Assembly: GCF_000315545.1 (NCBI RefSeq)
Contig: NZ_JH992902.1
Span: forward strand, 221,280 to 285,279
Source: Selenomonas sp. F0473
GTDB taxonomy: Bacteria; Bacillota; Negativicutes; Selenomonadales; Selenomonadaceae
DNA length: 64,000 nucleotides
Reading direction: 5' to 3'
Part shown: piece after piece, positions 37,319 to 60,735 of the stretch
Layout: each line of letters opens with the position of its first letter
Position numbering within the stretch: the first letter of the stretch is position 1
The notes under the pieces: generated by a model
What the model saw: only the letters and a program-made list of their open reading frames with translations
Told to the model about the DNA's origin: nothing
The model's database searches: none
Position numbers and translations under genes: made by a program

Positions 37319-37322
37319 CGAG

Positions 37323-37442: not shown

Positions 37443-37615
37443 AATCAGCATCATAGTGTGGCGAAGCTGACATTAAGATACCTCTTTTTACTGTCTGATT
37501 TCATTATGCTACTAAGATTTGTTTCGTGTCTATACATTAAAATAAAGTTGGCTATAAAATAAGCATGATGATTCAATGTAAATTCAAATTTGGGTAGAAA
37601 CGAGGAATATTAACG

Positions 37616-39786: not shown

Positions 39787-41434
39787 ACGGAAAATAAGGT
39801 TGGACTTTTGGACCGGCGTTACGATCCTATCGATTGCGGTATTTTCACTCTTTCTCATCTATCCGCTGTTTTCGCTGTTCACATCCGCCTTTCAGAACGC
39901 GGAGACCGGCGCTTTTTCACTCGAGCATTTCGTGCATTTTTTCCAGCGAAAATATTATTATCAGTCGATGATCAATAGTTTTTCCGTAACGCTTTGCGTG
40001 ACGGTACTCGCGATCCTTATCGGAACGACGCTGGCTTACTTCATGACGAAATACAAAATTCGAGGAAAAAACGTCGTGGAGATCTGCATCATCATCTCGC
40101 TCCTCTCGCCGCCGTTCATCGGTGCGTACTCGTGGATTCTGATCGGCGGGCGCAGCGGCATGCTGACGCAATGGCTGTATGATACGTTCGGTTATGAGTT
40201 TCCGTCGATCTACGGCTTTGCAGGAATCCTGCTCGTGTTGACGCTGAAGCTCTATCCGTTTATCTATCTCTATGCGGCGGGAGCAATGAAAAATATCGAT
40301 TCCGCGCTTATCGAGGCTGCGGAAAGTCTCGGATGCAGCGGTATCCGCAAAGTATTTACGGTCATTGTGCCGCTCATCACGCCGACGATTCTCGCAGGGG
40401 CGCTCATGGTGTTCATGAACGCAATGGCAGACTTTGGTACGCCGATGCTGATCGGCGAGGGATTCAACGTCATGCCGGTCATGATCTACTCTGAGTTTAT
40501 CAACGAGGTGGGAGACCAGGCAAACTTTGCCGCAGCGATGGCGGCGATCATGGTCGTCATTACGTCGACGATATTCCTGCTGCAAAAGTTTGTCGTCAAT
40601 CGTAAATCCTTTACGATGAGCTCGCTGCGGCCGATGCAGTCTGAGAGAATGACAGGTGTCGGCAATATCGTCATGCACGCTGTGATCTATTTCTTGGTTG
40701 CACTTTCTATGATACCACAGCTTGTCGTTGTCTATACATCGTTTCTTAATACGAGAGGAGCGGTCTTTGTCGAAGGCTACTCGCTGGATAGTTATCGGAC
40801 GATTTTCGAGACACTCGGCACAGCGATTACAAACACCTATCTTTACAGTACGTCGGCAATCCTTTTGATCGTATTCCTTGGCGCAACGGTGGCTTACCTC
40901 ACGACACGCCGACGAAGCGCGCTGACCGAGTTCATCGACGTGCTGACTATGTTCCCGTATATCATCCCCGGTTCTGTTCTCGGTATTACGCTGCTGCTCG
41001 CGTTCAACGATGAGCCGATTCTGCTTTCGGGCACGGCGTTTATCATCATCATTTCGCTGGTTATCCGGCGTCTGCCGTATACGCTGCGCTCGAGTTCGGC
41101 GATCCTCTATCAGATCAGTCCGAGTATCGAAGAGGCATCAATCAGTCTCGGTGCGTCGCCGCTTAAGACGTTCTTCAAAGTGACGGCGGTCATGATGCTC
41201 CCCGGGGTCATGAGCGGAGCGATTCTCTCATGGATCACGGCGATCAACGAGTTGAGTTCCTCCGTTATCCTGTTTACAGGCGCAACGAAAACAATGTCCG
41301 TAGCGATTTATACCGAAGTCATTCGCGCCAGTTACGGTACGGCTGCCGCATTATCTACGATCCTCACGCTGACGACGGTCGCGGCGATGGTTGTTTTCTT
41401 CCGTGTCTCCGGCAGCAAGGATGTCACATTATAA
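39779..41434 (+). CDS. ABC transporter permease (fused double FbpB/AfuB-type)
   Basis: A 551-residue membrane protein made of two homologous halves of about six helices each. Each half contains a cytoplasmic coupling loop: EAAESLGCSGIRKVFTVIVP in the first and EEASISLGASPLKTFFKVT in the second. Fused permeases of this kind are typical of iron- or sugar-phosphate-type importers. ATG 39779 is preferred over ATG 39767, since AAGGA at 39763 fits the former. A short hairpin separates it from the binding protein gene. Confidence 0.92.
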   Translation: MNKRKIRLDFWTGVTILSIAVFSLFLIYPLFSLFTSAFQNAETGAFSLEHFVHFFQRKYYYQSMINSFSVTLCVTVLAILIGTTLAYFMTKYKIRGKNVVEICIIISLLSPPFIGAYSWILIGGRSGMLTQWLYDTFGYEFPSIYGFAGILLVLTLKLYPFIYLYAAGAMKNIDSALIEAAESLGCSGIRKVFTVIVPLITPTILAGALMVFMNAMADFGTPMLIGEGFNVMPVMIYSEFINEVGDQANFAAAMAAIMVVITSTIFLLQKFVVNRKSFTMSSLRPMQSERMTGVGNIVMHAVIYFLVALSMIPQLVVVYTSFLNTRGAVFVEGYSLDSYRTIFETLGTAITNTYLYSTSAILLIVFLGATVAYLTTRRRSALTEFIDVLTMFPYIIPGSVLGITLLLAFNDEPILLSGTAFIIIISLVIRRLPYTLRSSSAILYQISPSIEEASISLGASPLKTFFKVTAVMMLPGVMSGAILSWITAINELSSSVILFTGATKTMSVAIYTEVIRASYGTAAALSTILTLTTVAAMVVFFRVSGSKDVTL

Positions 41435-41458
41435 GGTGCCTTTGATAAACTTGCGGTT

Positions 41459-41485
41459 CTTTTGGAACGATTTTGTTCCGAAAAA
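41459..41485 (+). other. Intergenic hairpin between permease and binding-protein genes
   Basis: GGAAC (41464-41468) pairs with GTTCC (41475-41479) around a 6-nt loop, extended by T/A pairs across a bulged G. It has no T run and lies just before a strong AGGAGG (41491-41496). It may protect the downstream mRNA so the binding protein is made in excess. Confidence 0.4.
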
Positions 41486-41503
41486 TATAAAGGAGGTATT
41501 TCA

Positions 41504-42541
41504 ATGAAGTTTAAGAAACTGCTCGCTGCACTGGCGGCAGGCGTCTTCCTCGGCGGCGTGCTCGCAGGTTGCGGCGGAGGGGGACAGAAAGAGGAGAAGG
41601 CTGCGTCCGACGACAAGACGTTGGTCGTCTACTGCCCGCATCCGCTTGCGTTCATCAATCCTCTCGTTCAGGAGTTTGAGAAACAGAGCGGCATCCATGT
41701 CGAGGTCATCGCCGCCGGTACCGGCGAGCTCCTCAAGCGCGTCGAATCTGAGAAGGCCAATCCGCTCGGCGATATTTTCTGGGGCGGTTCACTCAACACA
41801 ATGAAGCCGAAGGCAGATTTGTTCGAGAACTACACGTCCGCAAACGAGGATCATATCCAGCCAGCATTTAAGAACGTCGAAGGCTCGATGACGCGGTTCA
41901 CCGATATCCCGAGCGTGATTATGGTCAACACAAACCTCATCGGCGATATCAAGGTCAACGGCTATGAGGATCTTCTTAATCCGGCGCTCAAGGGCAAGAT
42001 CGCAATGAGCGATCCCTCGAAGTCTTCCTCGTCCTACGAGCATCTTGTCAATATGCTCTACGCGATGGGCAAGGGCGATCCGGATAAGGGCTGGGATTAT
42101 GTCGAGAAGTTCTGCCGCAATCTTGACGGCAAGCTCCTCTCCGGTTCCTCCGCCGTCTACAAAGGCGTTGCAGACGGCGAGTATGCGGTCGGCTGTACGT
42201 TCGAAGAAGGCGGCGCGAAGTATGTTGCCGACGGTGCGCCCGTGAAACTCGTTTACATGGAGGAGGGCGTTATCTCAAAGCCGGACGGCATCTATATCAT
42301 CAAAAATGCAAAGCACATGGAGAACGCAAAGAAGTTCATCGACTTCATCACAAGCAAAGAGGCGCAGAGCATCATCGCATCGCAGCTGCACCGCCGCTCC
42401 GTGCGTGACGATGTGGATCCGCCCGTAGGGCTCATACCGAAGGATCAGATCAACATCATCAACGATGATGAGGGAACGGTCGAGAAGAACAAGAAGGCGT
42501 GGCTCGACAAGTTTAAGGATATCTTTACAAGCGTCCAGTAA
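41504..42541 (+). CDS. Extracellular solute-binding lipoprotein (family 1, FbpA/AfuA-like)
   Basis: A 345-residue lipoprotein with signal LLAALAAGVFLGGVLAGC (Cys22 lipidated), then LVVYCPHPLAFINPLVQEFE, GTGELLKRVESEKANPLGDI and YEDLLNPALKGKIAMSDPS, the plan of the FbpA/AfuA/PgtC cluster. It has no adjacent Tyr-Tyr pair, which in classical FbpA binds ferric iron, so a phosphorylated organic ligand, as shown for AfuA, is a reasonable alternative. AGGAGG is 7 nt before ATG 41504. A terminator follows. The two-component genes downstream may sense the same ligand. Confidence 0.88.
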   Translation: MKFKKLLAALAAGVFLGGVLAGCGGGGQKEEKAASDDKTLVVYCPHPLAFINPLVQEFEKQSGIHVEVIAAGTGELLKRVESEKANPLGDIFWGGSLNTMKPKADLFENYTSANEDHIQPAFKNVEGSMTRFTDIPSVIMVNTNLIGDIKVNGYEDLLNPALKGKIAMSDPSKSSSSYEHLVNMLYAMGKGDPDKGWDYVEKFCRNLDGKLLSGSSAVYKGVADGEYAVGCTFEEGGAKYVADGAPVKLVYMEEGVISKPDGIYIIKNAKHMENAKKFIDFITSKEAQSIIASQLHRRSVRDDVDPPVGLIPKDQINIINDDEGTVEKNKKAWLDKFKDIFTSVQ

Positions 42542-42551
42542 AAGCATGACG

Positions 42552-42594
42552 GAAGGCAATCGGAGAAATTCTCTCCCCGATTGCCTTCTTTTTT
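42552..42594 (+). terminator. Terminator of the ABC transporter operon
   Basis: GAAGGCAATCGG (42552-42563) pairs perfectly with CCGATTGCCTTC (42577-42588), followed by TTTTTT. Confidence 0.9.
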
Positions 42595-42602
42595 GTTATA
42601 AT
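42594..42602 (+). promoter_or_regulatory. Extended -10 promoter of the two-component genes
   Basis: TGTTATAAT at 42594-42602 directly behind the terminator T run. No good -35 lies 17 nt upstream, as is usual for extended -10 promoters. Confidence 0.6.
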
Positions 42603-42648
42603 AAAGACGTATTTTTGTGTTTTCAGAATGATGACGGAAGGTGAAAGC

Positions 42649-44310
42649 GTGCGGCGGAGACTGGAAGACGAGGTGCGTGAGGCGCTGATACGCTATGCCT
42701 TCGTACCGGTCGCAGTCGTCGCATTTTTGTGCGTCGCATGGGGGATATTTAACTGGGAGTGGAGCGTTGTTCGGCGGAACGGAGAGATTCGTGACCTCAC
42801 GGCGCAGATCTTCACCGAGACTGTTGAGGACTACAGCGAGCGCGTGAGTGAGATCACACGGCTTTCGATTGCGGATGTGAACGGCACAGGGGAGGCGCGG
42901 CAGGATTTTTTTACATCATTTTATGCGGCGGTGAATCGGCGTTCCGATCATCCGTATTTTTATTTGTTGAATGCAGACGGAGATACGATCTTTACCAACG
43001 ATAAGGAGTATCCCGCATATTTTCATAACGCATGGGGCATACTCGAACGCATGCGTACAAATAAAACGCCCGTCGTCGAGTTCGTACGCAGCGGAGAAAA
43101 GAACTGGCAGCTCGTCGTTGGGCATCCATTTTCCGGCAAGGAAGGGGCTGTCGGATATGCGGCCTTCGTACTGCCGCGAGAAGCATTTATGTCGGCGGAT
43201 CTAACCTCCGATACGCATTGGGCAATCGCAGATGCATACGGTTATGTACCGTTCTCGACCCTGCCGCAGCTCCGCTCCGAGGAATTTGACAAGATGAGTC
43301 CGTCCCTGCGCAATGCGGACGGCATCGTAGATATCAAGGGGAGCCTTTTCTATGCATCGCATCGGGATATACTAGACGGCAGTTTTCGTGTATATGCCTT
43401 TACACCGATTGAGCATGTGCTGTGGCAATATACGGTGGGGGCATCGGTGCTTCTCGGTGTGTTTGTTGTCATGGTACCGGCGGTTCTCATACGCGTGCGC
43501 AATGAAACGAAAGGGAAAATGAAGGCGGCCGAGGAAATCATGAGAGCATTTCATGAGGTGCGGCGCGGACGTCTGAACCATCGCTTAGAGATTCATACGG
43601 GGAATGAATTCGAAGAAATTGCGGCGTCATACAACAGAACAGTGGACGGCATTAAGCGGTTGATTCGCCTCAGCGAGGAACAGACGCGTGCGAAGGTTGT
43701 CTCAGAGCTGCGTCAGCTCGAGTCGCAGTTTAATCCCCATTTTCTCTTTAATACGCTGGAAAATATCAGATACATGATTCGTTTAGAGCCGGCAGCAGCT
43801 GTTGAGATGATTATGGACCTCTCGGCACTCCTGCGTTACAGTATCGAACGAGAGACGAATGTGCCGCTTGCAGAGGATCTGGAGCATCTTGCAAGCTACC
43901 TTCGGATTCAGCGCCGCCGCTTTGGAACACAGCTTTCCTATAATGAGGAGATTGCCGCGGGAGCGCTGCCCTGCCGTGTGCCGAAACTTATCCTGCAGCC
44001 TGTCGTAGAAAATGCTATCAAGTACGGTGCAGACGACAAGGGGCACATACGTATTCACGTGCGTGCCGTCAAAGAAGACGACCTACTTGTCATCACGGTT
44101 ACAGATGAAGGGAATGGAATTGCGCCGGAAAAATTAGAACGCCTGCAGAAGATGCTCCGAAGTGGAGAGAATACGTCTATCCATACGGGCGTGCACAATG
44201 TTCATCGGAGAATCCAGCTCCTTTATGGGGCGCAATACGGACTTCGCATGACATGTGGGAAAGACGGCGGAACCTGTGTGGAGATGCGTTGTCCGGCGCG
44301 CGTCTCATAG
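42649..44310 (+). CDS. Sensor histidine kinase (LytS/YesM-like)
   Basis: About 553 residues. A first transmembrane helix (VPVAVVAFLCVAWGIFNW) is followed by an extracytoplasmic sensor domain of about 220 residues, a second helix (TVGASVLLGVFVVMVPAVLI), a HAMP-like linker and a His_kinase domain with ESQFNPHFLFNTLENIRYMI (phosphoacceptor His364 from GTG 42649). A HATPase with LILQPVVENAIKYGADD and DEGNGIAPEKL completes it. GTG 42649 suits GGAAGGTG at 42636; ATG 42628 is an alternative. It pairs with the response regulator 24 nt downstream and probably senses the importer's ligand. Confidence 0.9.
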   Translation: MRRRLEDEVREALIRYAFVPVAVVAFLCVAWGIFNWEWSVVRRNGEIRDLTAQIFTETVEDYSERVSEITRLSIADVNGTGEARQDFFTSFYAAVNRRSDHPYFYLLNADGDTIFTNDKEYPAYFHNAWGILERMRTNKTPVVEFVRSGEKNWQLVVGHPFSGKEGAVGYAAFVLPREAFMSADLTSDTHWAIADAYGYVPFSTLPQLRSEEFDKMSPSLRNADGIVDIKGSLFYASHRDILDGSFRVYAFTPIEHVLWQYTVGASVLLGVFVVMVPAVLIRVRNETKGKMKAAEEIMRAFHEVRRGRLNHRLEIHTGNEFEEIAASYNRTVDGIKRLIRLSEEQTRAKVVSELRQLESQFNPHFLFNTLENIRYMIRLEPAAAVEMIMDLSALLRYSIERETNVPLAEDLEHLASYLRIQRRRFGTQLSYNEEIAAGALPCRVPKLILQPVVENAIKYGADDKGHIRIHVRAVKEDDLLVITVTDEGNGIAPEKLERLQKMLRSGENTSIHTGVHNVHRRIQLLYGAQYGLRMTCGKDGGTCVEMRCPARVS

Positions 44311-44334
44311 AGGCCGCAGATAAGGAGAGAGCAT

Positions 44335-45120
44335 ATGCGCAAACTCTTGATTGTCGAAGATGAGGAAATGATCCGACGCGGGCTCGTCAATACGATTGAC
44401 TGGGGCAGTATGGGATGCAGTATTGTCGGCGATGCCGCAGACGGCAACGAAGGCCTGAAGATGATTCGGAACCTACATCCCGATATTATTCTGACCGATA
44501 TCAAGATGCCCCGCATGGATGGGCTTGCGATGGCACGGCAGGCGCGGGACGAGGGCTTAAACGCAGCGCTTATATTCCTTACGAGTTACAGTGATTTTAC
44601 ATATGCCCGCGAGGCGATTCGTCTCGATGCCGCGGACTATCTGTTAAAGCCCGTAGACGAGTATGAACTCAGGGCGCTGATCGAAAAACTTGTAGAGAAA
44701 GAGCCGGATGAGGAAAAATGTGCCTCGCATCTTCCCGTCAATCCTTTGCCGTGGCAACAGTGGCTCACGGATGAAACGCTCAATCCCTATGTGCGTCAGA
44801 CTATGCGTCGCATACAACAATCCTATGCAGCGCGCATCAGCATCGAGCGTCTTGCCGATGAGTTCGGCGTCAGCGCGAGTTATCTGAGCCGTAAATTTAA
44901 AGAAGCCGCGCGGCAGACCTTCGGCGAAATCCTCACGCGCCAACGTCTCTATATGGCGGCGCGTCAACTTTCGACGGGAATCTATCGTGTGTACGAAGTC
45001 GCCGAACAGAACGGATTCGGCGATTATAAAAACTTCTGTACCGTGTTCAAGAAATATGCGGGAGAATCTCCGACGGAGTTTATGAGACATCGGAGAGGAA
45101 ACGCGGTGCGGGACGAATAG
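44335..45120 (+). CDS. AraC-type response regulator (YesN-like)
   Basis: A 261-residue protein with a receiver domain (LLIVEDEEMIRRGLVN, phosphoacceptor Asp55 in ILTDIKMPRMDG, and the YLLKPVDEYELR lysine) and a C-terminal AraC-type double helix-turn-helix with RLADEFGVSASYLSRKFKEA and VAEQNGFGDYKNFCTVFKKY. It should bind DNA when phosphorylated by the adjacent kinase; the upstream transporter operon is the obvious target, though no operator was identified. Confidence 0.92.
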   Translation: MRKLLIVEDEEMIRRGLVNTIDWGSMGCSIVGDAADGNEGLKMIRNLHPDIILTDIKMPRMDGLAMARQARDEGLNAALIFLTSYSDFTYAREAIRLDAADYLLKPVDEYELRALIEKLVEKEPDEEKCASHLPVNPLPWQQWLTDETLNPYVRQTMRRIQQSYAARISIERLADEFGVSASYLSRKFKEAARQTFGEILTRQRLYMAARQLSTGIYRVYEVAEQNGFGDYKNFCTVFKKYAGESPTEFMRHRRGNAVRDE

Positions 45121-45144
45121 AGAATTTATTAAGGAGCGGTTCGC

Positions 45145-45681
45145 ATGGAACACAAATATTTGATTGTAATCGATATGCAGAACGATTTTGTTACGGGCGC
45201 TTTGGGAACGGCTGAAGCGCGCACGATAGTGCCGCGTGTCGTACGAAAAGCAAAGGGATTTCAAGGGACGGTAATCTTAACGCAGGATACGCATGGAAAT
45301 GATTATCTTACAACGCAGGAAGGCCGTATTCTTCCCATTCCGCATTGTATTCGGGGCACCGAGGGCTGGCGGCTTGTTCCTGAACTTGACAGACTGAAGA
45401 AGGAGCTTGGACTGACCGTTTATGAGAAGTCCACGTTTGGAAGTATTCGACTTGCCAAAGCTCTATATGAAAAAAATAAGAAGCGCCGCATCGACTTCAT
45501 TGAACTAGTTGGCCTTTGCACCGATATTTGCGTTGTCAGTAACGCGATCCTTTTCAAAGCGTTTCTGCCGGAGACACATATCGTCGTAGACGCTTCTTGT
45601 TGTGCAGGCGTCACTCCCGAGACACACGCGGCGGCTCTTACAACCTTGAGGAATTGTCAAGTGGAGATAAAGGATGTTTAG
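45145..45681 (+). CDS. Cysteine hydrolase, nicotinamidase/isochorismatase family
   Basis: A 178-residue isochorismatase-like protein. The catalytic triad is visible: Asp10 in LIVIDMQNDFVTGALG, Lys95 in VYEKSTFGS and Cys129 in LVGLCTDICVVSNAI, with a following cis-peptide-type segment. Length and NDFVTGALG fit nicotinamidase-like enzymes that release ammonia from nicotinamide, but related amidases look the same. It follows the response regulator by 24 nt with an AAGGAG site; there is no obvious functional link. Confidence 0.85.
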   Translation: MEHKYLIVIDMQNDFVTGALGTAEARTIVPRVVRKAKGFQGTVILTQDTHGNDYLTTQEGRILPIPHCIRGTEGWRLVPELDRLKKELGLTVYEKSTFGSIRLAKALYEKNKKRRIDFIELVGLCTDICVVSNAILFKAFLPETHIVVDASCCAGVTPETHAAALTTLRNCQVEIKDV

Positions 45682-45732
45682 ACCTTTCATTATCTTAGAA
45701 ATAATGTAAATTTCAACAAAAGGAGCAGCAGC

Positions 45733-46932
45733 ATGTCAGATAAAGAATATGATAGAAAATATAAAGAAGAACAGCCGGTTGTAGCGATTTGCTATGATTT
45801 TGATAAGACGTTGTCTCCTGATAATATGCAGGAGCAAGGATATATTCAATCGCTTGATTATGATGATATCCGGAAATTTTGGGAAAAGTCCAACTCCCTT
45901 GCTGAAGATAATGAAATGGATCAAAATTTATCTTATATGTATTTGATGAAGAAAGAAGCGGAAGGAAAAGTACTATTTACCAAAAAGAAGCTCAAAGAAT
46001 GCGGCGCCGGGGTTCAGTTATTCCCCGGGGTGGAGGAATGGTTCGAACGTATTCGTTCATATGGAAGAAAAAAAGGGGTTATCGTTGAGCATTATATTAT
46101 CTCTTCCGGTCTTAAGGAGATAATTGAAGGAACTTCAGTAGCAAAGGCAGGCGCCTTTGAAAAAATATATGCCAGTTCTTTTTACTATAATGAAAATGAT
46201 GTCGCGATATGGCCGGCTCAGATCGTAAATTATACCGGTAAAACGCAGTTTTTATTCAGAATAGAAAAGGGCGTCTTGGATATTAATGATCCGGCAGTTA
46301 ACGAGCATTTCTCGCCGGAAGAAATAAGAGTGCCGTTTCGTAATATGATCTATATCGGAGACAGCGATACGGATATCCCGTGTATGAAACTAGTTAACTC
46401 ATACGGTGGATATTCTATCGGCGTTTATGATTCAAATACTATGGATAAGAAGAAAGTATATAAAATGATGCGCGACGGGAGAGTGAGATATTTTGTTCCC
46501 GCCGACTATTCGGAGGAGACGGAATTAGATATCCTTGTCAAATCAATTATTGACCGAACAGCGGCAAACGAGAAGTTGGAAACGCTTCATTGCAAATATA
46601 AAAACGAGTTTGTCATGGCGGATAGAGAATACAATGAAGAAGAACGTGAGAAAACGGACTTGATTATTTCATTAGAAAACAGCAATAGCTTTAAGGATAC
46701 GCATTCTAAGATTGCCGCCTTGCAGAAAATTGATCATTGGACATCTGATGAAAAAGAAATGCTCCTTAATATTGCGCTTCATAATAATCAGGTTTATTAC
46801 ATTTTAGGCGATTCAGACGTAATGTTTTTTTACCAAAAAATATTAAAAGGAATGAAGACGCCGACTGCCCAAGAAGTAAGGAAAAATTTAAAAAAGGCGG
46901 GCAAGGAAAAGGATCTAACAAATGGAAATTAA
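45733..46932 (+). CDS. HAD family phosphatase-like protein with extra C-terminal region
   Basis: A 399-residue protein with the HAD motifs CYDFDKTLSPDNMQEQG (Asp22, Asp24), HYIISSGLKEII (motif II) and MIYIGDSDTDIPCMKLV (motif IV), of the phosphoserine-phosphatase-like branch. Residues about 300-399 are an extra helical module with ALHNNQVYYILGDSDVMFFY that I do not recognise. Codon use is markedly A+T-rich, unlike rbgA that follows, which points to acquisition by transfer. The 3' end carries the ribosome site (AAAAGGA) of rbgA and overlaps it by 11 nt. Substrate unknown. Confidence 0.8.
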   Translation: MSDKEYDRKYKEEQPVVAICYDFDKTLSPDNMQEQGYIQSLDYDDIRKFWEKSNSLAEDNEMDQNLSYMYLMKKEAEGKVLFTKKKLKECGAGVQLFPGVEEWFERIRSYGRKKGVIVEHYIISSGLKEIIEGTSVAKAGAFEKIYASSFYYNENDVAIWPAQIVNYTGKTQFLFRIEKGVLDINDPAVNEHFSPEEIRVPFRNMIYIGDSDTDIPCMKLVNSYGGYSIGVYDSNTMDKKKVYKMMRDGRVRYFVPADYSEETELDILVKSIIDRTAANEKLETLHCKYKNEFVMADREYNEEEREKTDLIISLENSNSFKDTHSKIAALQKIDHWTSDEKEMLLNIALHNNQVYYILGDSDVMFFYQKILKGMKTPTAQEVRKNLKKAGKEKDLTNGN

Positions 46933-47830
46933 CGACGCCATCGACATGCCGCGCCTGCAATGGTACCCAGGGCATATGCGAAAAGCGGAGCGGCTTGTTA
47001 AAGAAAATCTAAAGCTCGTGGATATGGTGGTGGAGCTGCTCGATGCGCGCATTCCGATGAGTTCGGCGAATCCTGTGCTGCGCGAGATCGTTGCGGGCAG
47101 GCCGCGACTTGTCGTGCTGAACAAATCCGACCTTGCGGAGCCTACGGCGACGCGCGCATGGGTGCAGTATTTTGCATCGCAGGATATTGTCGCCGTGCCC
47201 GTTGACGCGGTGAAGGGCCGCGGGATAAAAGAACTGGTACAGGAAATACAGCGCCTTGCGGTGCCGCGGACGGAAAAGTTGGCGAAGCACGGAGCGAAAC
47301 CGCGTGCCGCGCGATGCATGATCCTCGGTATCCCGAATGTGGGGAAATCCTCGCTTATCAACCGACTGTCCGGCGGTGCGCGGACGAAGGTGGAAAATCG
47401 TCCCGGCGTAACGCGAGCGAAGCAATGGATCCGCATCGGGGCTCAGCTCGAACTGCTCGATATGCCCGGGATTCTTTGGCCGAAGTTTGAAGACGCACAA
47501 GCAGCGCTCCGCCTCGCGTTCACAGGGGCAATCAGCGATACGGTCTACGATGTGGGCGGCGTTGTCCTGCAGCTCCTCCGTGCGTTGCGTACGGACTATC
47601 CGGCGGCGCTGTGTCAGCGCTATGAACTTAGCGATGCGATACCCGATGGGATAGAACTGCTTGAGGAGATTGGAAGGCGGCGCGGCTGTCTTGTCCGCGG
47701 CGGCAGGATTGATTATGAAAAAGCGGAGCAGATGATTCTCACAGATTTTCGCAGCGGGCGGCTTGGCCGAGTGACGCTTGACCCTCTGCCTGAGGCGGAT
47801 ACCGATGACACGAACGTCGGCATGCGGTGA
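46922..47830 (+). CDS. rbgA: Ribosome biogenesis GTPase RbgA (YlqF)
   Basis: A 302-residue circularly permuted GTPase: LQWYPGHMRKAERLVKENL at the start, G4 VVLNKSDLA before G1 ILGIPNVGKSSLINRLSG and G3 LLDMPGILWPKF. RbgA promotes late assembly of the 50S subunit. ATG 46922 has AAAAGGA 8 nt upstream within the HAD gene; ATG 46946 is a shorter alternative. The stop overlaps the rnhB region, matching the rbgA-rnhB order in Bacillus. Confidence 0.94.
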   Translation: MEINDAIDMPRLQWYPGHMRKAERLVKENLKLVDMVVELLDARIPMSSANPVLREIVAGRPRLVVLNKSDLAEPTATRAWVQYFASQDIVAVPVDAVKGRGIKELVQEIQRLAVPRTEKLAKHGAKPRAARCMILGIPNVGKSSLINRLSGGARTKVENRPGVTRAKQWIRIGAQLELLDMPGILWPKFEDAQAALRLAFTGAISDTVYDVGGVVLQLLRALRTDYPAALCQRYELSDAIPDGIELLEEIGRRRGCLVRGGRIDYEKAEQMILTDFRSGRLGRVTLDPLPEADTDDTNVGMR

Positions 47831-47838
47831 AGGAATTG

Positions 47839-48597
47839 ATGAAATTGACGATAAAAGAAATAGAGAACGTATTTTTATACGGTACGGTGACGGAAGAGTT
47901 TCTTGTGCTGTGCCGTGCCGATATGCGGAAGTCTGTACAGACACTCTTGCGCCGTTATGAACGTGCATACCGCGAACATGAGCGCCTTGCGGCCATGTAT
48001 ACCTATGAGCGTGCGGCGGCAGAACGCGGAAATGTGCTCGTTGCCGGCGTGGATGAAGCGGGGCGCGGACCTCTTGCGGGGCCGGTGGCGGTCGCTGCAG
48101 TAATTCTCCCGCAGGAACTTTATTTGTCTCGTCTGAATGATTCGAAGAAATTGAGCGCAAAAGTGCGTGAAGACCTTTTTGTGGAGATTACGGATCAAGC
48201 GATTGCTTATCATGTGACGCTCGTCGACGCCGCGGAGATTGACCGTATCAACATCTTACAGGCGACGCTGCGCGGGATGTACGAGGCGGTCGCGGCACTT
48301 ACACCTGTGCCGGAGGAAGTCCTGATAGACGCCGTGGAGCTGCCGCGGCTCTCCATTCCGTCGCAGGCGATTATCAAAGGCGACGCGAAGTCCGCGTCTA
48401 TTGCCGCGGCATCGATTCTCGCGAAGGTCACGCGCGACCGATTGATGGAGCAATACGATGTGGAATATCCGGGGTATGGATTTGCGCGGCATAAGGGGTA
48501 CGGGACGGCGGAACATATCGCGGCGATCAGAAAACGCGGCGTGTGTCCGATCCATCGCCGTACGTTTGAACCGATACGATCCATCATCATGCAATAG
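47839..48597 (+). CDS. rnhB: Ribonuclease HII
   Basis: A 252-residue enzyme with VAGVDEAGRGPLAGPVAVAA (catalytic Asp72 and Glu73), LNDSKKLSAKVRE and YDVEYPGYGFARHKGYGTAEH. It removes ribonucleotides from DNA. An N-terminal helical extension of about 65 residues is common in Firmicute RnhB. ATG 47839 follows AAGGA; GTG 47827 inside rbgA is also in frame. Confidence 0.95.
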   Translation: MKLTIKEIENVFLYGTVTEEFLVLCRADMRKSVQTLLRRYERAYREHERLAAMYTYERAAAERGNVLVAGVDEAGRGPLAGPVAVAAVILPQELYLSRLNDSKKLSAKVREDLFVEITDQAIAYHVTLVDAAEIDRINILQATLRGMYEAVAALTPVPEEVLIDAVELPRLSIPSQAIIKGDAKSASIAAASILAKVTRDRLMEQYDVEYPGYGFARHKGYGTAEHIAAIRKRGVCPIHRRTFEPIRSIIMQ

Positions 48598-53813: not shown

Positions 53814-53822
53814 TGTTATAAT
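53814..53822 (+). promoter_or_regulatory. Extended -10 promoter of the glycosylation operon
   Basis: TGTTATAAT at 53814-53822, about 50 nt before the GTG at 53872, in the first non-coding gap after comM. The -35 (TACAAC) is poor. Confidence 0.6.
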
Positions 53823-53871: not shown

Positions 53872-54828
53872 GTGGCAGAGAAGATTCGTCCGGAGCTCCT
53901 CTCGTTTCTAACTCCCGACGCCGCTTCTCTTCGGATTCTCGTTGTAGAGAGTCTCGTCTATCTGCCGCGGCTTCGGACGATGTTTCCGCATGCGGAACTA
54001 TATGCTGTGACCGCTGCGTTGGAGCAGAACGGCGCCGATTTTCCGGCGGGCATTCACTGGCAGTTCCTCGACTATCTTGCTGTTCCGTTGCCCTATACGC
54101 GCGGATTTTTCGACTATATCGTCTCCGATCTCACGTTGGAGTATGCCGATAATCCGCAGGACATCGCGGCGGGATTTTCGACTTTTCTAAAGGAAACGGG
54201 ATCGCTGCTTACCAGTTTTCGTAACATTCGGCATTGGTCGATCCTACAGAACCTCATGCAGGGACATTATTACGGCGTCGTCTCGCGTTTGTATGCCCGA
54301 CCTGAATTTGAGAATCTCCTCTATGCTTCGTTCTATAAGGCTGTTCGCGTAATAGCACAGTATCGCGAAGCGCCGGACGGGATGATTGAGAGACTCATGG
54401 CAGCAGGATTCGAGAATGAACGGAACGATCTCGAAACGGAGTTTTATCTCGTTCGCGCCGACCGCTCCATGCCGGAGTTGTCTTTGCTCAAGTCCATGTA
54501 TACGGCGAAAGACCGTGGAGATATGGCGCGGATCATTCATCGGATTGAATACGACATAGAGCCGGAGGAATCCGTTCGATCGTTGTGGGAGCTTGCGGAT
54601 CGTTTGGGCATCTTTCCGGACTATCTTGCATCGTTCATTCGGGAAACGGTTGTGCATACAGATAATTTTTACCGGTGCTTGATGAGATATTCCTCCGTGC
54701 GGCAGGATTTCATCGTCCGGATGCTCGAGATCGGCTCAGGAGAGAGTTTTGATCCTGCCGCGCGTAGAATTTATGCGGTGCTTCGCATAGAATCGGAAAA
54801 CGGAAGTGAAGAGAAGGAACATGATTGA
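53872..54828 (+). CDS. Methyltransferase-like protein of a glycosylation operon
   Basis: A 318-residue protein. The first half reads like a class-I SAM methyltransferase: RILVVESLVYLPRLRTMFPH, ELYAVTAALEQ, then FFDYIVSDLTLEYADNPQDI and TFLKETGSLLTSFRNI. The glycine-rich SAM loop is poorly conserved, so activity is uncertain. The C-terminal 100 residues are helical (HRIEYDIEPEESVRSLWELA). It overlaps the glycosyltransferase gene by 8 nt and is probably a partner in sugar or protein modification. The GTG start is at 53872. Confidence 0.6.
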   Translation: MAEKIRPELLSFLTPDAASLRILVVESLVYLPRLRTMFPHAELYAVTAALEQNGADFPAGIHWQFLDYLAVPLPYTRGFFDYIVSDLTLEYADNPQDIAAGFSTFLKETGSLLTSFRNIRHWSILQNLMQGHYYGVVSRLYARPEFENLLYASFYKAVRVIAQYREAPDGMIERLMAAGFENERNDLETEFYLVRADRSMPELSLLKSMYTAKDRGDMARIIHRIEYDIEPEESVRSLWELADRLGIFPDYLASFIRETVVHTDNFYRCLMRYSSVRQDFIVRMLEIGSGESFDPAARRIYAVLRIESENGSEEKEHD

Positions 54829-55510
54829 TTCGGACTGCAGTAAAGTTGCCTTTATTTCCTGTGTCAATGACGAAGATATATACAACGAGTGTCTATTGTA
54901 TTTAAGATCGCTGCATATTCCGGAAGGAATGTCGGTCGAGTATATTCCTGTGCGCGGGGCATCTTCGATGTGTGCGGGCTATAACGAAGGAGCGCGGCAG
55001 ACGAATGCGCGCTACAAGGTCTATCTGCACCAGGATGTGCTCGTCGTTAATAAAGAGTTCATTCGGGATCTGATTTCCATCTTTCGGGACGAAGAAATCG
55101 GCCTGGTAGGTATGATCGGCTGCCGTAGTCTGCCGCGCTCCGGGGTTTGGTGGGACGGTCTGCGCACCTATGGCAGGGTACTGCATCACTGCGAATCCGA
55201 GAGTGTGGTGGACTCGCATTGTATGGAACCAGACGGCCCTTATATCGAGGTGGAAGCGGTTGACGGCCTGCTCATTGCAGCGCAGTATGATATACGATGG
55301 CGTGACGATCTATTTACAGGATGGCATCTCTATGACACATCCATGTGTATGGAGATGCAGCGTCATGAATTCAAGGTCGTTGTGCCGAATCAGGAAGACG
55401 ATTTTTGGTGCATTCATTGTCCGCGTGAGAAACCGCTTGCGCCGGAATATAAGCGGTACCAAAAGATTTTTCTTAGAGAATACGGATCTGAACTGAATCC
55501 CGAAGTATAG
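54821..55510 (+). CDS. Glycosyltransferase family 2-like protein (StrF domain)
   Basis: A 229-residue protein with VAFISCVNDEDIYNECLLYL, GASSMCAGYNEGARQTNARY, KVYLHQDVLVVNK and DDLFTGWHLYDTSMCMEMQR. This matches the StrF-type GT-A family, where the HQD segment replaces the usual DxD. It is likely a cytoplasmic sugar transferase. AAGGA lies 4-5 nt before ATG 54821, inside the upstream gene. It is followed after 30 nt by the TPR/GT41 gene. Confidence 0.78.
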   Translation: MIDSDCSKVAFISCVNDEDIYNECLLYLRSLHIPEGMSVEYIPVRGASSMCAGYNEGARQTNARYKVYLHQDVLVVNKEFIRDLISIFRDEEIGLVGMIGCRSLPRSGVWWDGLRTYGRVLHHCESESVVDSHCMEPDGPYIEVEAVDGLLIAAQYDIRWRDDLFTGWHLYDTSMCMEMQRHEFKVVVPNQEDDFWCIHCPREKPLAPEYKRYQKIFLREYGSELNPEV

Positions 55511-55540
55511 AGAGACTAGAGGGAAAGGAGGGCTTCCCAC

Positions 55541-57307
55541 ATGTATGGGAAAGCTCCGCAGGGGGAATATACCGCAGAAGAAAAGATGAACTGGCTCAAA
55601 TTAGCCGCAAAATTTTCTGCAGACGGAGATTTAAAGGGGATGCGCGCGTGCGCACAAGAAGTCGATAAACTCGTGGAAGGCGATATCGATGCGGTTGCGG
55701 TAAATGCCGAAGCCGCCCTCTACAGCGGCAGTATCGACGAGGCAGAAGCGCTTGCTCGGCAGGTGCTCCGCGTTCATCCGCGCCATCCGCGCGCACGTAT
55801 GGTGCAGGCGGGGCTTGCGGCACTCGAGTTTAGGCTGAAAGATGAGATTCCTCTGCTGGCCGATCTCATCGAGGAGCTCTCTCTCAAGGCAGAGATTCTC
55901 GGAGAAGACGATCCTGCCTATAGTATTTACCGGCAGATGCTTAAACGTGCGCGCGGATGGCTGGCTGATGCCCTCTATCTTGGCGGAGAGCCAAAGGGGG
56001 CCGCACATGAGCTCCTCATGTCGAGTCGTCTCGCGAAAGAGCCGGCCGAGGCCGCCGAACTTTACAGCAAATATCTTTTCATGCGGAATTATCGGTATCT
56101 CAGTGCGCGCGAGGGGAAAGAGCGGGCGGAACGCTATAACGATATGCTCTCCACAGGGGAGTACAAGCATGAAAGTGCATTGCGAACGGAGCACCGAAAG
56201 CTTCGTATCGGTTATATATCCCCGGATTTCCGAGAACACGCCGTCGCTTATTTTTTAACGCCGCTCCTGCGGCATTTTGACGGCGAGAGATTTATGGTAT
56301 TCTGTTATGCGACGGGGAGGAGCGATAAGGTAACGGATCGTTTACGTTCACGTCGTGTCACATGGCGCGACCTGCGCAGCCGATCTCCGCGTACGTCTGC
56401 GCGGCTCGTTAACGAGGATAAAATCGACATTCTTGTTGATCTTTCCGGGCATTCGCAGGACAACGCTCTGCCCGTTATGGCGTACCGCCCCGCACCCGTT
56501 CAGATCTCCGGTATTGGCTATACGAATACGACGGGACTGCATACCGTAGATTACTTCCTCTCGGACGAGGTTTGTATTCCCAAAGGGGATACCGCTGCAG
56601 AGTCCGGATTTACCGAACGGATCCTGCGTTTGCCGCATTCACATCTCTGCTATGCACCGGAAGATATCCGCACCATGCCGGAGAGCGGGGGCGAAGCGCC
56701 TGTGCGCAGGAACGGATATGTCACCTTTGGAAGTTTCAATAATTTTGCTAAAGTGACGGATGAAATCCTGCTCCTTTGGCGCGGTATTTTAGAATCTGTG
56801 CGTGATTCCAGGATTGTCATCAAGTCGAAGATATGCAGTATTGACGACGGAAAAGACTTCTTGAAAAAACGGCTTTCTCTTCTGAATTTTGACCTTTCCC
56901 GCGTTGAACTGCGTCCCTATAGTCCCGATTATCTGGAACAGTATCGGGATATCGATATTGCGCTCGACACCGCCCCTTATAACGGCGGACTTACGACATG
57001 TGAAGCCCTCTATATGGGCGTACCGGTCATCTCCATGCGAGGTCGTACGCATGGGGCGCGCTTTGGCGCATCTATTCTCATCAATGCAGGGCTGCGGGAA
57101 CTCGTCGTTGAAAACGACATCAATTACGTCCGCCGCGCCGTTCAGTTGGCGGAGTCGCCGAAACTGATCGAGGCGTATCATGCGGGACTTCGAACGAATA
57201 TGAAACGATCTCCCCTGATGGATGCAAAATCTTATATGCGTGCGCTGGGAGATGCGTATATGAAGGTATGGAAAGATTTCTGCGAGCAGCCGAGACCTAA
57301 CAAATAG
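55541..57307 (+). CDS. TPR and GT41 (O-GlcNAc transferase/SPINDLY-like) protein
   Basis: A 588-residue protein. Residues 1-200 are TPR-like helical repeats (ALYSGSIDEAEALARQVLRV); residues 215-580 are the GT41 catalytic region with LRIGYISPDFREHAVAYFL, ILVDLSGHSQDNALPVMAYR, PVQISGIGYTNTTGL, VTFGSFNNFAKVTDEIL and PYNGGLTTCEALYMGVPVI. Bacterial relatives add sugars to Ser/Thr of proteins in the cytoplasm, including flagellin. With the preceding genes it probably glycosylates flagellin or another abundant protein; the target is not shown. GGAAAGGAGG precedes the start. Confidence 0.85.
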   Translation: MYGKAPQGEYTAEEKMNWLKLAAKFSADGDLKGMRACAQEVDKLVEGDIDAVAVNAEAALYSGSIDEAEALARQVLRVHPRHPRARMVQAGLAALEFRLKDEIPLLADLIEELSLKAEILGEDDPAYSIYRQMLKRARGWLADALYLGGEPKGAAHELLMSSRLAKEPAEAAELYSKYLFMRNYRYLSAREGKERAERYNDMLSTGEYKHESALRTEHRKLRIGYISPDFREHAVAYFLTPLLRHFDGERFMVFCYATGRSDKVTDRLRSRRVTWRDLRSRSPRTSARLVNEDKIDILVDLSGHSQDNALPVMAYRPAPVQISGIGYTNTTGLHTVDYFLSDEVCIPKGDTAAESGFTERILRLPHSHLCYAPEDIRTMPESGGEAPVRRNGYVTFGSFNNFAKVTDEILLLWRGILESVRDSRIVIKSKICSIDDGKDFLKKRLSLLNFDLSRVELRPYSPDYLEQYRDIDIALDTAPYNGGLTTCEALYMGVPVISMRGRTHGARFGASILINAGLRELVVENDINYVRRAVQLAESPKLIEAYHAGLRTNMKRSPLMDAKSYMRALGDAYMKVWKDFCEQPRPNK

Positions 57308-57342: not shown

Positions 57343-60300
57343 ATGGCCTTTGTCCATCTGCATGTGCATACGGAATACAGCTTGCTTGACGGCGCGAGCC
57401 GGATTAAGGATCTTGTACAGCGTACGAAAGAGCTGGGGATGGACGCGGTTGCCATCACGGATCACGGCGTTATGTATGGCGCCGTTGCATTCTATAAGGA
57501 GGCAAAAGCACAGGGCATCCATCCGATCATCGGCTGCGAAGTCTATGTTGCCCCCCGATCGCGTCATGAACGCGCGGAGGCGGACGGCGTTCGATATTAT
57601 CATCTTATTCTGCTTGCGGAGAACGAAGTAGGATATCGTAACTTAGTTCAACTCGTATCCTTCGCGAATATCGAGGGATATTATTATAAGCCTCGGGTGG
57701 ATAAAGAACTTCTGCGAGAGTATCATGAGGGGATCATCGCCCTCTCCGCCTGTGTGGCGGGGGAGATTCCGCGCGCCGTACTGCGGGGAGACATTGAACA
57801 GACAGAGCAGATCCTTGCGGAATACGTGGATATATTCGGCCGCGATAACTTTTTCCTCGAGATACAGGATCATGGACTCAGCGATGAAAAGACGGTCAAT
57901 CACGCATTGCGGGAACTTGCCGCAAAGCATGGGATAGGACTTGTCGCGACGAACGACGTGCACTATGTGCGCGCGGAGGACAGCGAGTTTCACGATATCC
58001 TCCTCTGCGTGCAGACGGGACGGACTATCAATGACCCCGACCGCATGCGGTTTTCTGGACCCGATTACTATCTGAAATCCGAAGAGGAGATGGCGTCCCT
58101 CTTCCGGGATTATCCGGACGCCGTCGAGAATACGGCGAAGATTGCCGCACGCTGCCGCGTAGACTTTACCTTCGGAGAGTTGCAACTGCCGTTTTATCCC
58201 ATTCCGGAAAACTTCGAGAATGACGACGCATATTTGCGGACGCTCTGTGAGGAACGCCTGCCGTCTCGTTATGCGGATATTACGGATGAGATTCGCGAAC
58301 GCCTCGACTATGAGCTCGGCGTCATTCATGGGATGGGGTATGCCAGCTACTTCCTCATCGTGTGGGATTTCATCATCTACGCGCGGGAGCACGGCGTCGC
58401 CGTCGGCCCCGGCCGCGGTTCTGCGGCGGGCAGCATTGTCGCATATCTGCTCGGCATCACGAACATCGACCCGCTCCGCTACGCGCTCCTCTTTGAGCGG
58501 TTCTTGAACCCCGAACGCGTATCCATGCCGGATATCGATATCGACTTCGACGATATCAACCGCGGACGGGTGATTTCGTATGTCAAAGAGCGGTACGGCG
58601 AGGACCATGTCGCCCAGATTGCAACCTTCGGAACGATGGGGGCAAAGGGCGCGATCCGCGATGTGGGGCGTGTCCTTGAGATGTCGTTCGGCGAGGTATC
58701 AAGCATTACCAAGCTCGTTCCCGCAGAACTCAATATGAGCCTTGACCGCGCGCTGAAGGAATCCGCCGATTTTCGCCGCCTCTACGATGAAGACGAGTCC
58801 GTGCAGCGCGTCATCGATCTTGCGCGCAAGATCGAAGGACTGCCGCGCAATACGTCCATTCATGCGGCGGGCGTGGTGATCGCAAAGGAACCGCTCGCCC
58901 ATCATGTGCCCGTATGGGTGTCTGAGGGGACGCTCGTCACGGAGTTCGATAAGGACGACGTCGAGGCGCTTGGCCTTCTCAAGATGGATTTTCTCGGGCT
59001 GCGCACGCTAACCATTATCGAGGATGCTCTGAAGAATATCAAACAGTCCCACGGTATTGACCTCGACATCGACAATATCCCTCTTGAAGACAACTTAACC
59101 TCACAAATGCTTTGCAATGGCGATACGGGGGCCGTCTTCCAGATGGAGTCTGCGGGGATGACAAACCTCGTCAAGGATCTGCAGCCGAAGGGATTTGTCG
59201 ACCTCATTCCAACGGTTGCGCTCTATCGGCCGGGGCCTCTCGGCAGCGGTATGGTAACAGATTTCATCGACGGCCTGCACGGGAAAAAGGAAGTCGCCTA
59301 TATGCACCCGCTCTTAGAACCGATCCTCAAAGAGACGTTCGGCGTTGTGCTTTACCAAGAGCAGGTTATGCAGATCGTCCAGGTGCTTGCGGGCTTTACG
59401 CTCGGACAGGCAGACCTCCTGCGCCGCGCGATGGGCAAGAAGAAACACGATCTCTTGATGGCACAGAAGGAGGCCTTTCTCGCAGGCTGCGCGAAAAATG
59501 GGCTCGAAGCCGCACTTGCGAATCATATCTTCGATTTGCTCACACATTTTGCGGACTACGGGTTCAATAAGTCCCACAGCGCGTCCTACGGACTGCTCGC
59601 ATGGCAGACCGCGTACCTCAAGGCGCATTATCCCGTGGAGTTCATGGCGGGCGTTCTGACCAGCATTATGGATAAGACGGATAAGATCCCGGTCTATATC
59701 CAGCTCTGCCGTCAAATGAAGATTAAGATTCTGCCGCCGGATATTAATTCCAGCACGGCGGGATTCAGTATCGAGGACGGTGCGATACGGTTCGGGCTTG
59801 CGGCCGTTCGCAACGTCGGCGAGAATGCGATTGCGGTGCTGGAACGGGTGCGCACGGAGGGCGGGGCGTTCCGCTCTTTGGTCGATTTCTGCACGCGCGT
59901 CGATATGCGGACGCTCAACAAGAGAGCAATCGAGAGCCTCATCAAATGCGGGGCATTCGACAGTATCGGAGTGGAGCGGAATCGGCTGCTTGCGGCACTC
60001 GATTCCGCCATTATGGATGCGGCGCGCAGACAGCGAGATTTGCTCAGCGGGCAGATGGGGCTTTTTGGAGACGATACGATGGAGGAGGTACAGCAGGTTC
60101 GTATCTCCGCCGATGTTCTCCCCAGCACGCAGCGGGAACGCCTGACATGGGAAAAGGAAGCGACGGGGTTCTATATTACGGGACATCCTCTCGAGGACTA
60201 CCGCGAGACGCTGGACTGCCTCCTGCCGATTGCGCAGATTCCGGCTAAGGCGCATAGGGACCGCCAGACGGTTCGTATCGGCGGAATCCTAACGAGTACG

Positions 60301-60735
60301 AAACGATTCACCACCAAGAAGGGCGACACGATGCTCTTTGCCGATGTGGAAGATTTCAGCGGCCAAATTGAGGTGACGATTTTCCCGCGGGTCTTTTACG
60401 CACATGTATCAGACCTGGAGACGGACAATATCGTTGTCATTCAAGGCCACGTCGATGCGGCGGGGGAAACGCCAAAGCTGCTTGCAGATGAAATTTGGCG
60501 CATGGACGCGTATCGGACGTCATATTATCTGATTCCGCCCAAAGAGGCAGACCGGAACCTACTTTGGGCGCAGATGAAAGAATCATTTTCCAATCATCAA
60601 GGGGATCATCCCGTCTATGTGCAGAGCGACGGCCGATGGCGCAGGCTTGACGAGGCGTATTGGATTGACGGCAGCCCCGCGGTTGGGCAGGAACTCATAG
60701 CGCTCTTGGGCGCGCAGTCGGTTCGGGTTCGATAG
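57343..60735 (+). CDS. dnaE: DNA polymerase III subunit alpha
   Basis: A 1130-residue replicative polymerase. It has an N-terminal PHP domain (HLHVHTEYSLLDGASR, AITDHGVMYG) and the polymerase palm with GPGRGSAAGSIVAYLLGI and PDIDIDFDDINRGRVI (Asp397, Asp399, Asp401). The thumb has FNKSHSASYGLLAWQTAYLK, followed by helix-hairpin-helix, and a C-terminal OB domain (RIGGILTSTKRFTTKKGDTM). Length fits DnaE1. GAGAGGAGG precedes ATG 57343. It is followed after 9 nt by the rluB-type gene. Confidence 0.97.
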   Translation: MAFVHLHVHTEYSLLDGASRIKDLVQRTKELGMDAVAITDHGVMYGAVAFYKEAKAQGIHPIIGCEVYVAPRSRHERAEADGVRYYHLILLAENEVGYRNLVQLVSFANIEGYYYKPRVDKELLREYHEGIIALSACVAGEIPRAVLRGDIEQTEQILAEYVDIFGRDNFFLEIQDHGLSDEKTVNHALRELAAKHGIGLVATNDVHYVRAEDSEFHDILLCVQTGRTINDPDRMRFSGPDYYLKSEEEMASLFRDYPDAVENTAKIAARCRVDFTFGELQLPFYPIPENFENDDAYLRTLCEERLPSRYADITDEIRERLDYELGVIHGMGYASYFLIVWDFIIYAREHGVAVGPGRGSAAGSIVAYLLGITNIDPLRYALLFERFLNPERVSMPDIDIDFDDINRGRVISYVKERYGEDHVAQIATFGTMGAKGAIRDVGRVLEMSFGEVSSITKLVPAELNMSLDRALKESADFRRLYDEDESVQRVIDLARKIEGLPRNTSIHAAGVVIAKEPLAHHVPVWVSEGTLVTEFDKDDVEALGLLKMDFLGLRTLTIIEDALKNIKQSHGIDLDIDNIPLEDNLTSQMLCNGDTGAVFQMESAGMTNLVKDLQPKGFVDLIPTVALYRPGPLGSGMVTDFIDGLHGKKEVAYMHPLLEPILKETFGVVLYQEQVMQIVQVLAGFTLGQADLLRRAMGKKKHDLLMAQKEAFLAGCAKNGLEAALANHIFDLLTHFADYGFNKSHSASYGLLAWQTAYLKAHYPVEFMAGVLTSIMDKTDKIPVYIQLCRQMKIKILPPDINSSTAGFSIEDGAIRFGLAAVRNVGENAIAVLERVRTEGGAFRSLVDFCTRVDMRTLNKRAIESLIKCGAFDSIGVERNRLLAALDSAIMDAARRQRDLLSGQMGLFGDDTMEEVQQVRISADVLPSTQRERLTWEKEATGFYITGHPLEDYRETLDCLLPIAQIPAKAHRDRQTVRIGGILTSTKRFTTKKGDTMLFADVEDFSGQIEVTIFPRVFYAHVSDLETDNIVVIQGHVDAAGETPKLLADEIWRMDAYRTSYYLIPPKEADRNLLWAQMKESFSNHQGDHPVYVQSDGRWRRLDEAYWIDGSPAVGQELIALLGAQSVRVR

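What the first reader, a model, noticed from the sequence alone, without database searches (positions are those of the whole stretch)
53872..57307. Compact methyltransferase/StrF-GT/TPR-GT41 operon, probably for protein O-glycosylation
Three overlapping or closely spaced genes under one extended -10 promoter. The last has all the visible motifs of cytoplasmic O-GlcNAc-type transferases with its own TPR region. The nearby FliK-like and FlhB-like genes make flagellin a plausible target, though no flagellin gene is in the window.
Basis: partly seen in the sequence, partly recalled or inferred. Interest (0 to 1): 0.5.

Follow-up and report, generated by a model that had tools for sequence, protein, structure and literature searches.

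The report
Detached flagellin-glycosylation gene trio in Selenomonas
Three neighbouring sugar-transfer genes in a Selenomonas genome most likely help decorate the flagellum protein, since relatives of the same three genes stand beside flagellin in another genome and are missing from the examined relatives without flagella; it is a well-supported but fairly ordinary member of a known kind of system.

Summary
In detail: three same-strand genes (53872-54828, 54821-55510, 55541-57307) behind an exact extended -10 that recurs in 16 of 31 related loci. Orthologues of all three genes stand in one same-strand cluster with flagellin in L028. Genes 1 and 2 share one open frame in 13 of 107 genomes of the order. 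All three are absent from the 6 flagellin-less of these 107, and among 252 genomes of the class gene 1 is found in 111 of 151 with flagellin and 0 of 101 without.

Corrections. (1) The genome has further GT41 genes, four in an island beside a flagellin gene 0.8 Mb away; the trio is a detached, probably auxiliary module. (2) Gene 3 is closest to plant SPINDLY and has Tyr where human O-GlcNAc transferase has Cys; "O-GlcNAc-type" is not supported. (3) Gene 1 is methyltransferase-like, but none of 28 aligned members has the SAM glycine loop. (4) The FliK-like neighbour matched no FliK profile. Kinship weakens the co-loss statistics. GT41 with methyltransferase domains in flagellin glycosylation is already described in enterobacteria: a new member of a known kind.

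The parts
53814..53822 (+). extended -10 promoter element TGTTATAAT
   Evidence: exact TGnTATAAT 39-69 bases before gene 1 in 16 of 31 loci; 67 of 20,000 random stretches; not listed by the -35/-10 scanner
53872..54828 (+). gene 1: Methyltransf_11-like protein, 318 aa, without a glycine-rich SAM loop
   Evidence: orthologue present with gene 2 in 30 of 30 loci; one open frame with gene 2 in 13 of 107 genomes
54821..55510 (+). gene 2: GT2-type glycosyltransferase, Glyco_tranf_2_5 (PF13712), 229 aa from ATG 54821
   Evidence: 277.1 bits against cut-off 27; invariant HQD; GT-type fold matches of a low-confidence model
55541..57307 (+). gene 3: GT41 (SPINDLY/OGT-like) glycosyltransferase, 588 aa, with a short N-terminal part that matches TPR profiles only below their cut-offs
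   Evidence: PF13844 130.8 bits; best solved relatives SPINDLY 2.5e-81 and 5djs 2.2e-61; clade support 0.983
57343..60735 (+). dnaE, 35 bases behind gene 3, no terminator-like site found in the gap: possible read-through (context, not part of the function)
   Evidence: same order in L004-L011

Best explanation
The trio is an auxiliary cytoplasmic flagellin O-glycosylation module. GT41 (gene 3) transfers a sugar onto Ser/Thr of flagellin before export, or onto a sugar already there; the small GT2 (gene 2) adds a further sugar; gene 1, a methyltransferase-like partner that is fused to gene 2 in some genera, either methylates the glycan by a non-canonical SAM site or positions and stabilises gene 2. 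The work is shared with the larger GT41/GT2 island beside flagellin at 1.07-1.09 Mb. In Selenomonas proper the trio lies in front of dnaE under a housekeeping-type (extended -10) promoter, whereas in L028 it is part of the flagellin cluster. Shown: gene content, orthology, fusion, linkage in L028, joint absence with flagellin, promoter element. Inferred: substrate, sugars, order of reactions, role of gene 1.
For: L028: same-strand run GT41, TPR protein, flagellin, two GT9, gene-2 orthologue (71%), gene-1 orthologue (57%), GT2, gene-3 orthologue (53%), GT2a, within about 13 kb (GT2a by tblastn only). The L028 gene 3 falls in one clade with the window's (FastTree support 0.983), apart from the island GT41s. 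Gene-1 orthologues also stand among GT41 and, in part, TPR/GT2 island genes in L121, L124, L126 and L134, with flagellin on the same contig in G100 (about 15 kb), G069 (about 18 kb) and G106 (about 39 kb). Order, 107 genomes: flagellin in 101; gene-2 family in 94, gene 1 in 97, GT41 in 100; each in 0 of the 6 flagellin-less genomes. Class, 252 genomes: gene 1 in 111 of 151 flagellin-bearing and 0 of 101 flagellin-less genomes. Genes 1 and 2 in one open frame in 13 of 107 genomes (G004-G014, G062, G100), read directly in L119, L120, L121, L134. Selenomonas flagellin is reported as heavily O-glycosylated: passages of PMC13339959 and PMC10202936 that cite Rath et al. 2018 (that paper is not held).
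Against: In the window genome the trio is 0.6 Mb from the nearest flagellin gene and 0.8 Mb from the flagellin-linked island that looks like the main system. Its promoter is sigma-70-like; no sigma-28-like site was seen in the 99-138 bases searched before the trio in three loci (window, L004, L009). In G100 and G069 the closest gene-3 relative is on another contig, so the trio is split there, and the GT41s of L121, L124 and L134 fall in island clades; in L123 the GT41 beside genes 1 and 2 falls outside the trio clade. The flagellin-less genomes of the order belong to three genera only; in a DnaE tree they fall in two regions, and one (g5) stands beside g7, where the trio is missing or divergent, so independent joint losses may be as few as one or two. 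The Fisher values, 1.2e-7 for the order and 1.2e-37 for the class, ignore kinship. Of the 97 gene-1 matches in the order five are weak (G033, G034, G036, G037, G058; E 5.9e-5 to 3.9e-10) and those of G064 and G097 are only 31% and 40% identical, like the paralogue at 680 kb; the 14 class matches outside the family are weak too. Some flagellin-bearing genomes of the order lack gene 1 (4 of 101), the gene-2 family (7 of 101) or GT41 (1 of 101), so the trio is not needed for flagella. There is no biochemical evidence here.
Confidence: 0.7

Rival explanations
1. The trio glycosylates another exported protein: an adhesin or other surface protein, or other flagellar axial proteins such as hook-associated proteins, rather than flagellin itself.
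For: Housekeeping-type promoter and distance from flagellin in the window genome; GT41 relatives include HMW1C-like adhesin glycosyltransferases, though distantly (E 0.0012).
Against: Joint absence with flagellin and the flagellin-linked cluster L028. Hook-associated proteins would fit the joint absence equally well and are not excluded.
Confidence: 0.16
2. A lipid- or polysaccharide-directed glycosyltransferase cluster (LPS, capsule or the like).
For: Gene 2 is a broad GT2 type; the Foldseek neighbours of its low-confidence model include TarS, TarP and RmlT. In L119 a phosphoglucomutase and a UDP-galactopyranose mutase stand within about 6 kb of genes 1-2.
Against: The solved GT41 relatives are named as protein glycosyltransferases; no polymerase, export or nucleotide-sugar gene was recognised next to the trio in the window; gene 1 follows flagellin in its distribution.
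Confidence: 0.07
3. A regulatory intracellular O-glycosylation enzyme comparable to OGT or SPINDLY signalling.
For: Closest solved relative is plant SPINDLY; housekeeping-type promoter and position before dnaE.
Against: Short N-terminal part with TPR matches below cut-off only; joint absence with flagellin; coupling to two further glycan-type genes.
Confidence: 0.07

Closest known systems
Enterobacterial flagellin glycosylation islands with GT41 (SPINDLY domain, COG3914) enzymes (PMC4875605, passages seen)
   Same: GT41 transferases together with methyltransferase domains proposed to modify flagellin
   Different: There the genes lie in the flagellin locus and most GT41 proteins carry the methyltransferase domain themselves; here the trio is detached (before dnaE), and the methyltransferase-like part is linked or fused to a PF13712 GT2 and lacks the glycine loop
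Clostridium difficile type B flagellin glycosylation, GT1/GT2 (PMC5207246, passages seen, abstract included)
   Same: GlcNAc and then methylated rhamnoses are added; GT2 has a Pfam 08241 methyltransferase domain on a glycosyltransferase, as genes 1 and 2 are fused in 13 of 107 genomes here
   Different: Pfam 00535 glycosyltransferases directly behind fliC; no GT41 is mentioned in the passages seen
Caulobacter FlmG (PMC7591256, passages seen)
   Same: Soluble protein with a TPR part and a glycosyltransferase part that modifies flagellins in the cytoplasm
   Different: Uses pseudaminic acid; homology of FlmG to this GT41 was not tested here
Arabidopsis SPINDLY, protein O-fucosyltransferase (PMC9715652, two sections read and passages seen)
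   Same: Best solved relative; K665, H495 and pocket residue Y744 correspond to K404, H233, Y480
   Different: S496, H728, T747 and T748 correspond to Ala234, Tyr464, Gly483 and Leu484; short TPR part; bacterial operon context

Membership tests
GT41 (PF13844) | catalytic domain match above curated cut-off | tested here: met
   130.8 bits, cut-off 25
GT41 (PF13844) | Lys and His that are essential in SPINDLY (K665, H495) | tested here: met
   Lys at 404 in 16 of 16 and His at 233 in 15 of 16 aligned GT41s
GT41 (PF13844) | N-terminal TPR superhelix | tested here: inconclusive
   best TPR_16 at 56-109, 26.0 bits, cut-off 32.7; TPR_19 and TPR_14 also below cut-off
O-GlcNAc transferase | small residue (human C917) that leaves room for GlcNAc | tested here: not met
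   Tyr480, as SPINDLY Y744, in 16 of 16; meaning of the position from PMC9715652
SPINDLY O-fucosyltransferase | donor and acceptor contact residues of the active site | tested here: inconclusive
   Y480, K404, H233, N400 kept; Ala234 for S496 and Leu484 for T748
SPINDLY O-fucosyltransferase | GDP-fucose as donor | not testable with these tools
   the genome encodes Gmd (541.9 bits, cut-off 415) and RmlD (303.6 bits, cut-off 224.05); both are common (over cut-off in 6 and 9 of 14 control genomes), so this only says the donors are possible
Glyco_tranf_2_5 (PF13712) | profile match above cut-off | tested here: met
   277.1 bits, cut-off 27
Class I SAM methyltransferase (Methyltransf_11) | profile match above cut-off | tested here: not met
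   window protein 17.3 bits, cut-off 21.2, profile positions 45-94 only; but the L028 orthologue passes (26.4 bits), the 680-kb paralogue passes (32.7 bits), and 25 of 28 aligned members match at E<=0.1
Class I SAM methyltransferase (Methyltransf_11) | glycine-rich motif I (GxG after the acidic residue; motif recalled) | tested here: not met
   0 of 28 and 0 of 19 aligned members, acidic residue kept in all
Flagellin glycosylation system | linkage to flagellin | tested here: inconclusive
   not met in the window genome (nearest flagellin 0.6 Mb away); met in L028
Flagellin glycosylation system | found only in genomes with flagellin | tested here: met
   gene 1 in 0 of 101 flagellin-less and 111 of 151 flagellin-bearing genomes
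Flagellin glycosylation system | flagellin mass or glycopeptides depend on the genes | not testable with these tools
   needs mutants and mass spectrometry

The most novel reading that the evidence does not exclude
Gene 3 and its orthologues are bacterial SPINDLY-type enzymes that put a deoxyhexose (rhamnose or fucose), not GlcNAc, on flagellin Ser/Thr, and gene 1 is a pseudo-methyltransferase that has become a partner subunit of a PF13712 glycosyltransferase; pair and GT41 form a constitutively expressed core kept apart from the flagellum-regulated island.
Probability: 0.2. Interest if true: 0.6.

Novelty: new member of a known kind. Interest (0 to 1): 0.35.

Why it matters
Selenomonas flagellin is reported to carry unusual O-glycans (passages), but in the listings of the seven searches made (open-licence papers only, most not opened) I saw no paper that names the enzymes. 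The trio plus the island gives a short, testable list, and the missing SAM loop across the gene-1 family raises a clear question about pseudo-methyltransferases as glycosyltransferase partners.

Tried and rejected
O-GlcNAc transferase reading: not supported, because the pocket residue is Tyr. 'Empty site' test: the stretches upstream of dnaE in the six flagellin-less genomes (L110-L115) show neither the trio nor ComM/CutA by tblastn, so the locus is arranged differently and gives no clean footprint. Structure of gene 1: low confidence (mean pLDDT 63.0, pTM 0.45); best Foldseek match a putative methyltransferase, 3cc8, at E 0.0023 with TM 0.22/0.31 and none at E<=0.001, not usable for the SAM pocket. 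Gene 2 model: mean pLDDT 65.1, pTM 0.70; matches led by majastridin (2.6e-7). Solved-structure sequence search with gene 2: none at E<=1. PHROGs: none for the three proteins. NCBIfam: none for genes 1 and 2; for gene 3 the N-glucosyltransferase model at 21.8 bits (cut-off 1000) and a PEP-CTERM TPR model at 14.6 bits (cut-off 312.2). No terminator-like site between gene 3 and dnaE.

Sigma-28 test: a site with two mismatches to TAAA-N14-16-GCCGATAW precedes flagellin at 1.09 Mb, in L136 and in L028; two mismatches or fewer occur in 103 of 2000 random 300-base stretches. None was seen before the flagellin at 0.88 Mb, but that stretch began about 90 bases upstream of the likely true start.

Rows dropped before counts: in the GT41 tree hits spanning fewer than 300 query residues were left out, and 15 of 77 rows (mostly near-duplicates) were removed by name. 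Alignments used part of what was held: A1 19 chosen gene-1 sequences, A2 28 of 31 (L021, L024, L033 left out), A5 25 of 31 gene-2 sequences, A4 16 chosen GT41s. The promoter was first looked at in 21 of 31 loci and then in the other 10.

Full report
What is there. The window lies at 221,280-285,279 of a one-contig 2.07 Mb genome; by the GT41 protein the nearest named relative found is Selenomonas artemidis (86%). The three ORFs are real and compact: gene 1 53872-54828, gene 2 54821-55510 (ATG start in place of the listed GTG 54806), gene 3 55541-57307, then dnaE after 35 bases.

Conservation of the trio. The 30 loci fetched by similarity to gene 3 all carry gene-1 and gene-2 orthologues within about 3.5 kb upstream on the same strand; 29 of 30 in the order gene 1 - gene 2 - gene 3 and one (L028) as gene 2 - gene 1 - gene 3. 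In L031 the gene-3 match falls in two pieces. In 8 of 30 (L004-L011) dnaE follows; L030 ends just behind gene 3, so nothing can be said there. In L005 ComM and CutA are inverted while trio and dnaE stay together, which places the operon border before gene 1. In 13 of 107 genomes of the order genes 1 and 2 share one open frame, read directly in four loci.

Link to flagella. In the window genome the trio is 0.6 Mb from the nearest flagellin gene (0.88 Mb) and 0.8 Mb from the other (1.09 Mb). The genome has further GT41 genes: four GT41 matches at 1.077-1.084 Mb, all four in PF13844, lie among GT2, GT1-like and TPR genes next to flagellin, FliD and FlgK; single ones lie at 0.680 and 1.379 Mb. The third Flagellin_N hit is weak (29.2 bits, cut-off 26.6; Flagellin_C below cut-off), stands next to FlgK and is probably FlgL (my reading from position). 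A same-genus genome has the same GT2/flagellin/FliD arrangement with a GT41 (L136). So if flagellin is the target, the trio shares it with the island. Evidence that it is: the L028 cluster, where flagellin and orthologues of all three genes stand in one same-strand run with GT9, GT2, GT41 and TPR genes; a GT41 tree that puts the L028 and L126 copies with the window's in one clade (0.983), apart from the island copies; and distribution. Over 107 genomes of the order flagellin occurs in 101, the gene-2 family in 94, gene 1 in 97 (E<=1e-3), GT41 of any clade in 100 (E<=1e-30); the six flagellin-less genomes have none of the three. Over 252 genomes of the class gene 1 occurs in 111, all with flagellin, and in none of 101 without.

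What weakens this. Of the 111, 14 lie outside the family with weak scores (E 7.9e-11 to 3.4e-18) and may be other methyltransferases; of the 97 in the family five are weak and two look like the paralogue. Kinship: the DnaE tree of 24 sequences gives two regions for the flagellin-less genera, one of them next to g7, where the trio is missing or divergent. In G100 and G069, where gene 1 stands in a flagellin-linked island, the nearest gene-3 relative is on another contig; in L123 the GT41 beside genes 1 and 2 is outside the trio clade. The tie between genes 1 and 2 is thus firmer than the tie of both to gene 3.

The proteins. Gene 3: GT41, best solved relatives SPINDLY and a Thermobaculum protein. 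Against SPINDLY (PMC9715652) D491, H495, N661, K665 and Y744 are kept (D229, H233, N400, K404, Y480); S496, H728, T747 and T748 are not (A234, Y464, G483, L484). By that paper Y744 crowds out GlcNAc, so UDP-GlcNAc is not the expected donor; this is inference. The genome has RmlD and Gmd, which are common but make dTDP-rhamnose and GDP-deoxyhexoses possible donors. Gene 2: PF13712. Gene 1: the acidic residue at the end of the first strand is kept in 28 of 28, but none has GxG after it; the rest of the Methyltransf_11 pattern is recognisable. It may bind SAM in another way or not at all.

Expression. The trio has a sigma-70-type element and no sigma-28-like site in the short stretches searched, whereas three of four flagellin upstream stretches have a sigma-28-like site (see Tried and rejected for the control and a flaw in the fourth). 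The trio therefore looks constitutive, possibly with read-through into dnaE.

Known relatives. GT41 with SPINDLY-type and methyltransferase domains are described in enterobacterial flagellin glycosylation islands (PMC4875605, passages). C. difficile type B uses a GT2 with a Methyltransf_11 domain to add methylated rhamnoses (PMC5207246, passages). Selenomonas sputigena flagella carry rhamnose-linked O-glycans according to PMC13339959, while PMC10202936, citing the same study, speaks of fucose; the study itself could not be read. From recall only, that study also reports methylated glycans. The names ComM, CutA and YraN-type housekeeping for the upstream neighbours rest and on recall. The trio is a new member of a known kind, unusual in being detached from flagellin and in its methyltransferase-like partner without a glycine loop.

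Noticed in passing
L044:10894-20000 and L045:346-9073 (genome 1.0729-1.0911 Mb): Flagellin-linked island with four GT41 matches, GT2/GT1-like proteins and a TPR protein next to flagellin; some open frames (for example L044:16027-19101 and L045:3497-7444) carry more than one glycosyltransferase stretch.
   Followed up: partly
L046:7302-9580 (genome 0.679-0.682 Mb): Paralogous pair: a gene-1-like protein (38%, passes Methyltransf_11) beside a divergent GT41, between a biotin-synthase-like radical SAM gene and a metallophosphoesterase.
   Followed up: partly
L047:8010-9704 (genome 1.379 Mb): Single GT41 (43%) directly before mnmE; second GT41s with 40-44% identity to gene 3 occur in same-genus genomes, whether beside mnmE was not checked.
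   Followed up: partly
L031:10001-11696: Gene-3 orthologue matches in two overlapping pieces with different identity (49% and 70%): frameshift or assembly error.
   Followed up: no
window 34000-48000: G+C falls to 0.40-0.52 against 0.55-0.65 before it: possibly acquired DNA.
   Followed up: no
   Followed up: partly
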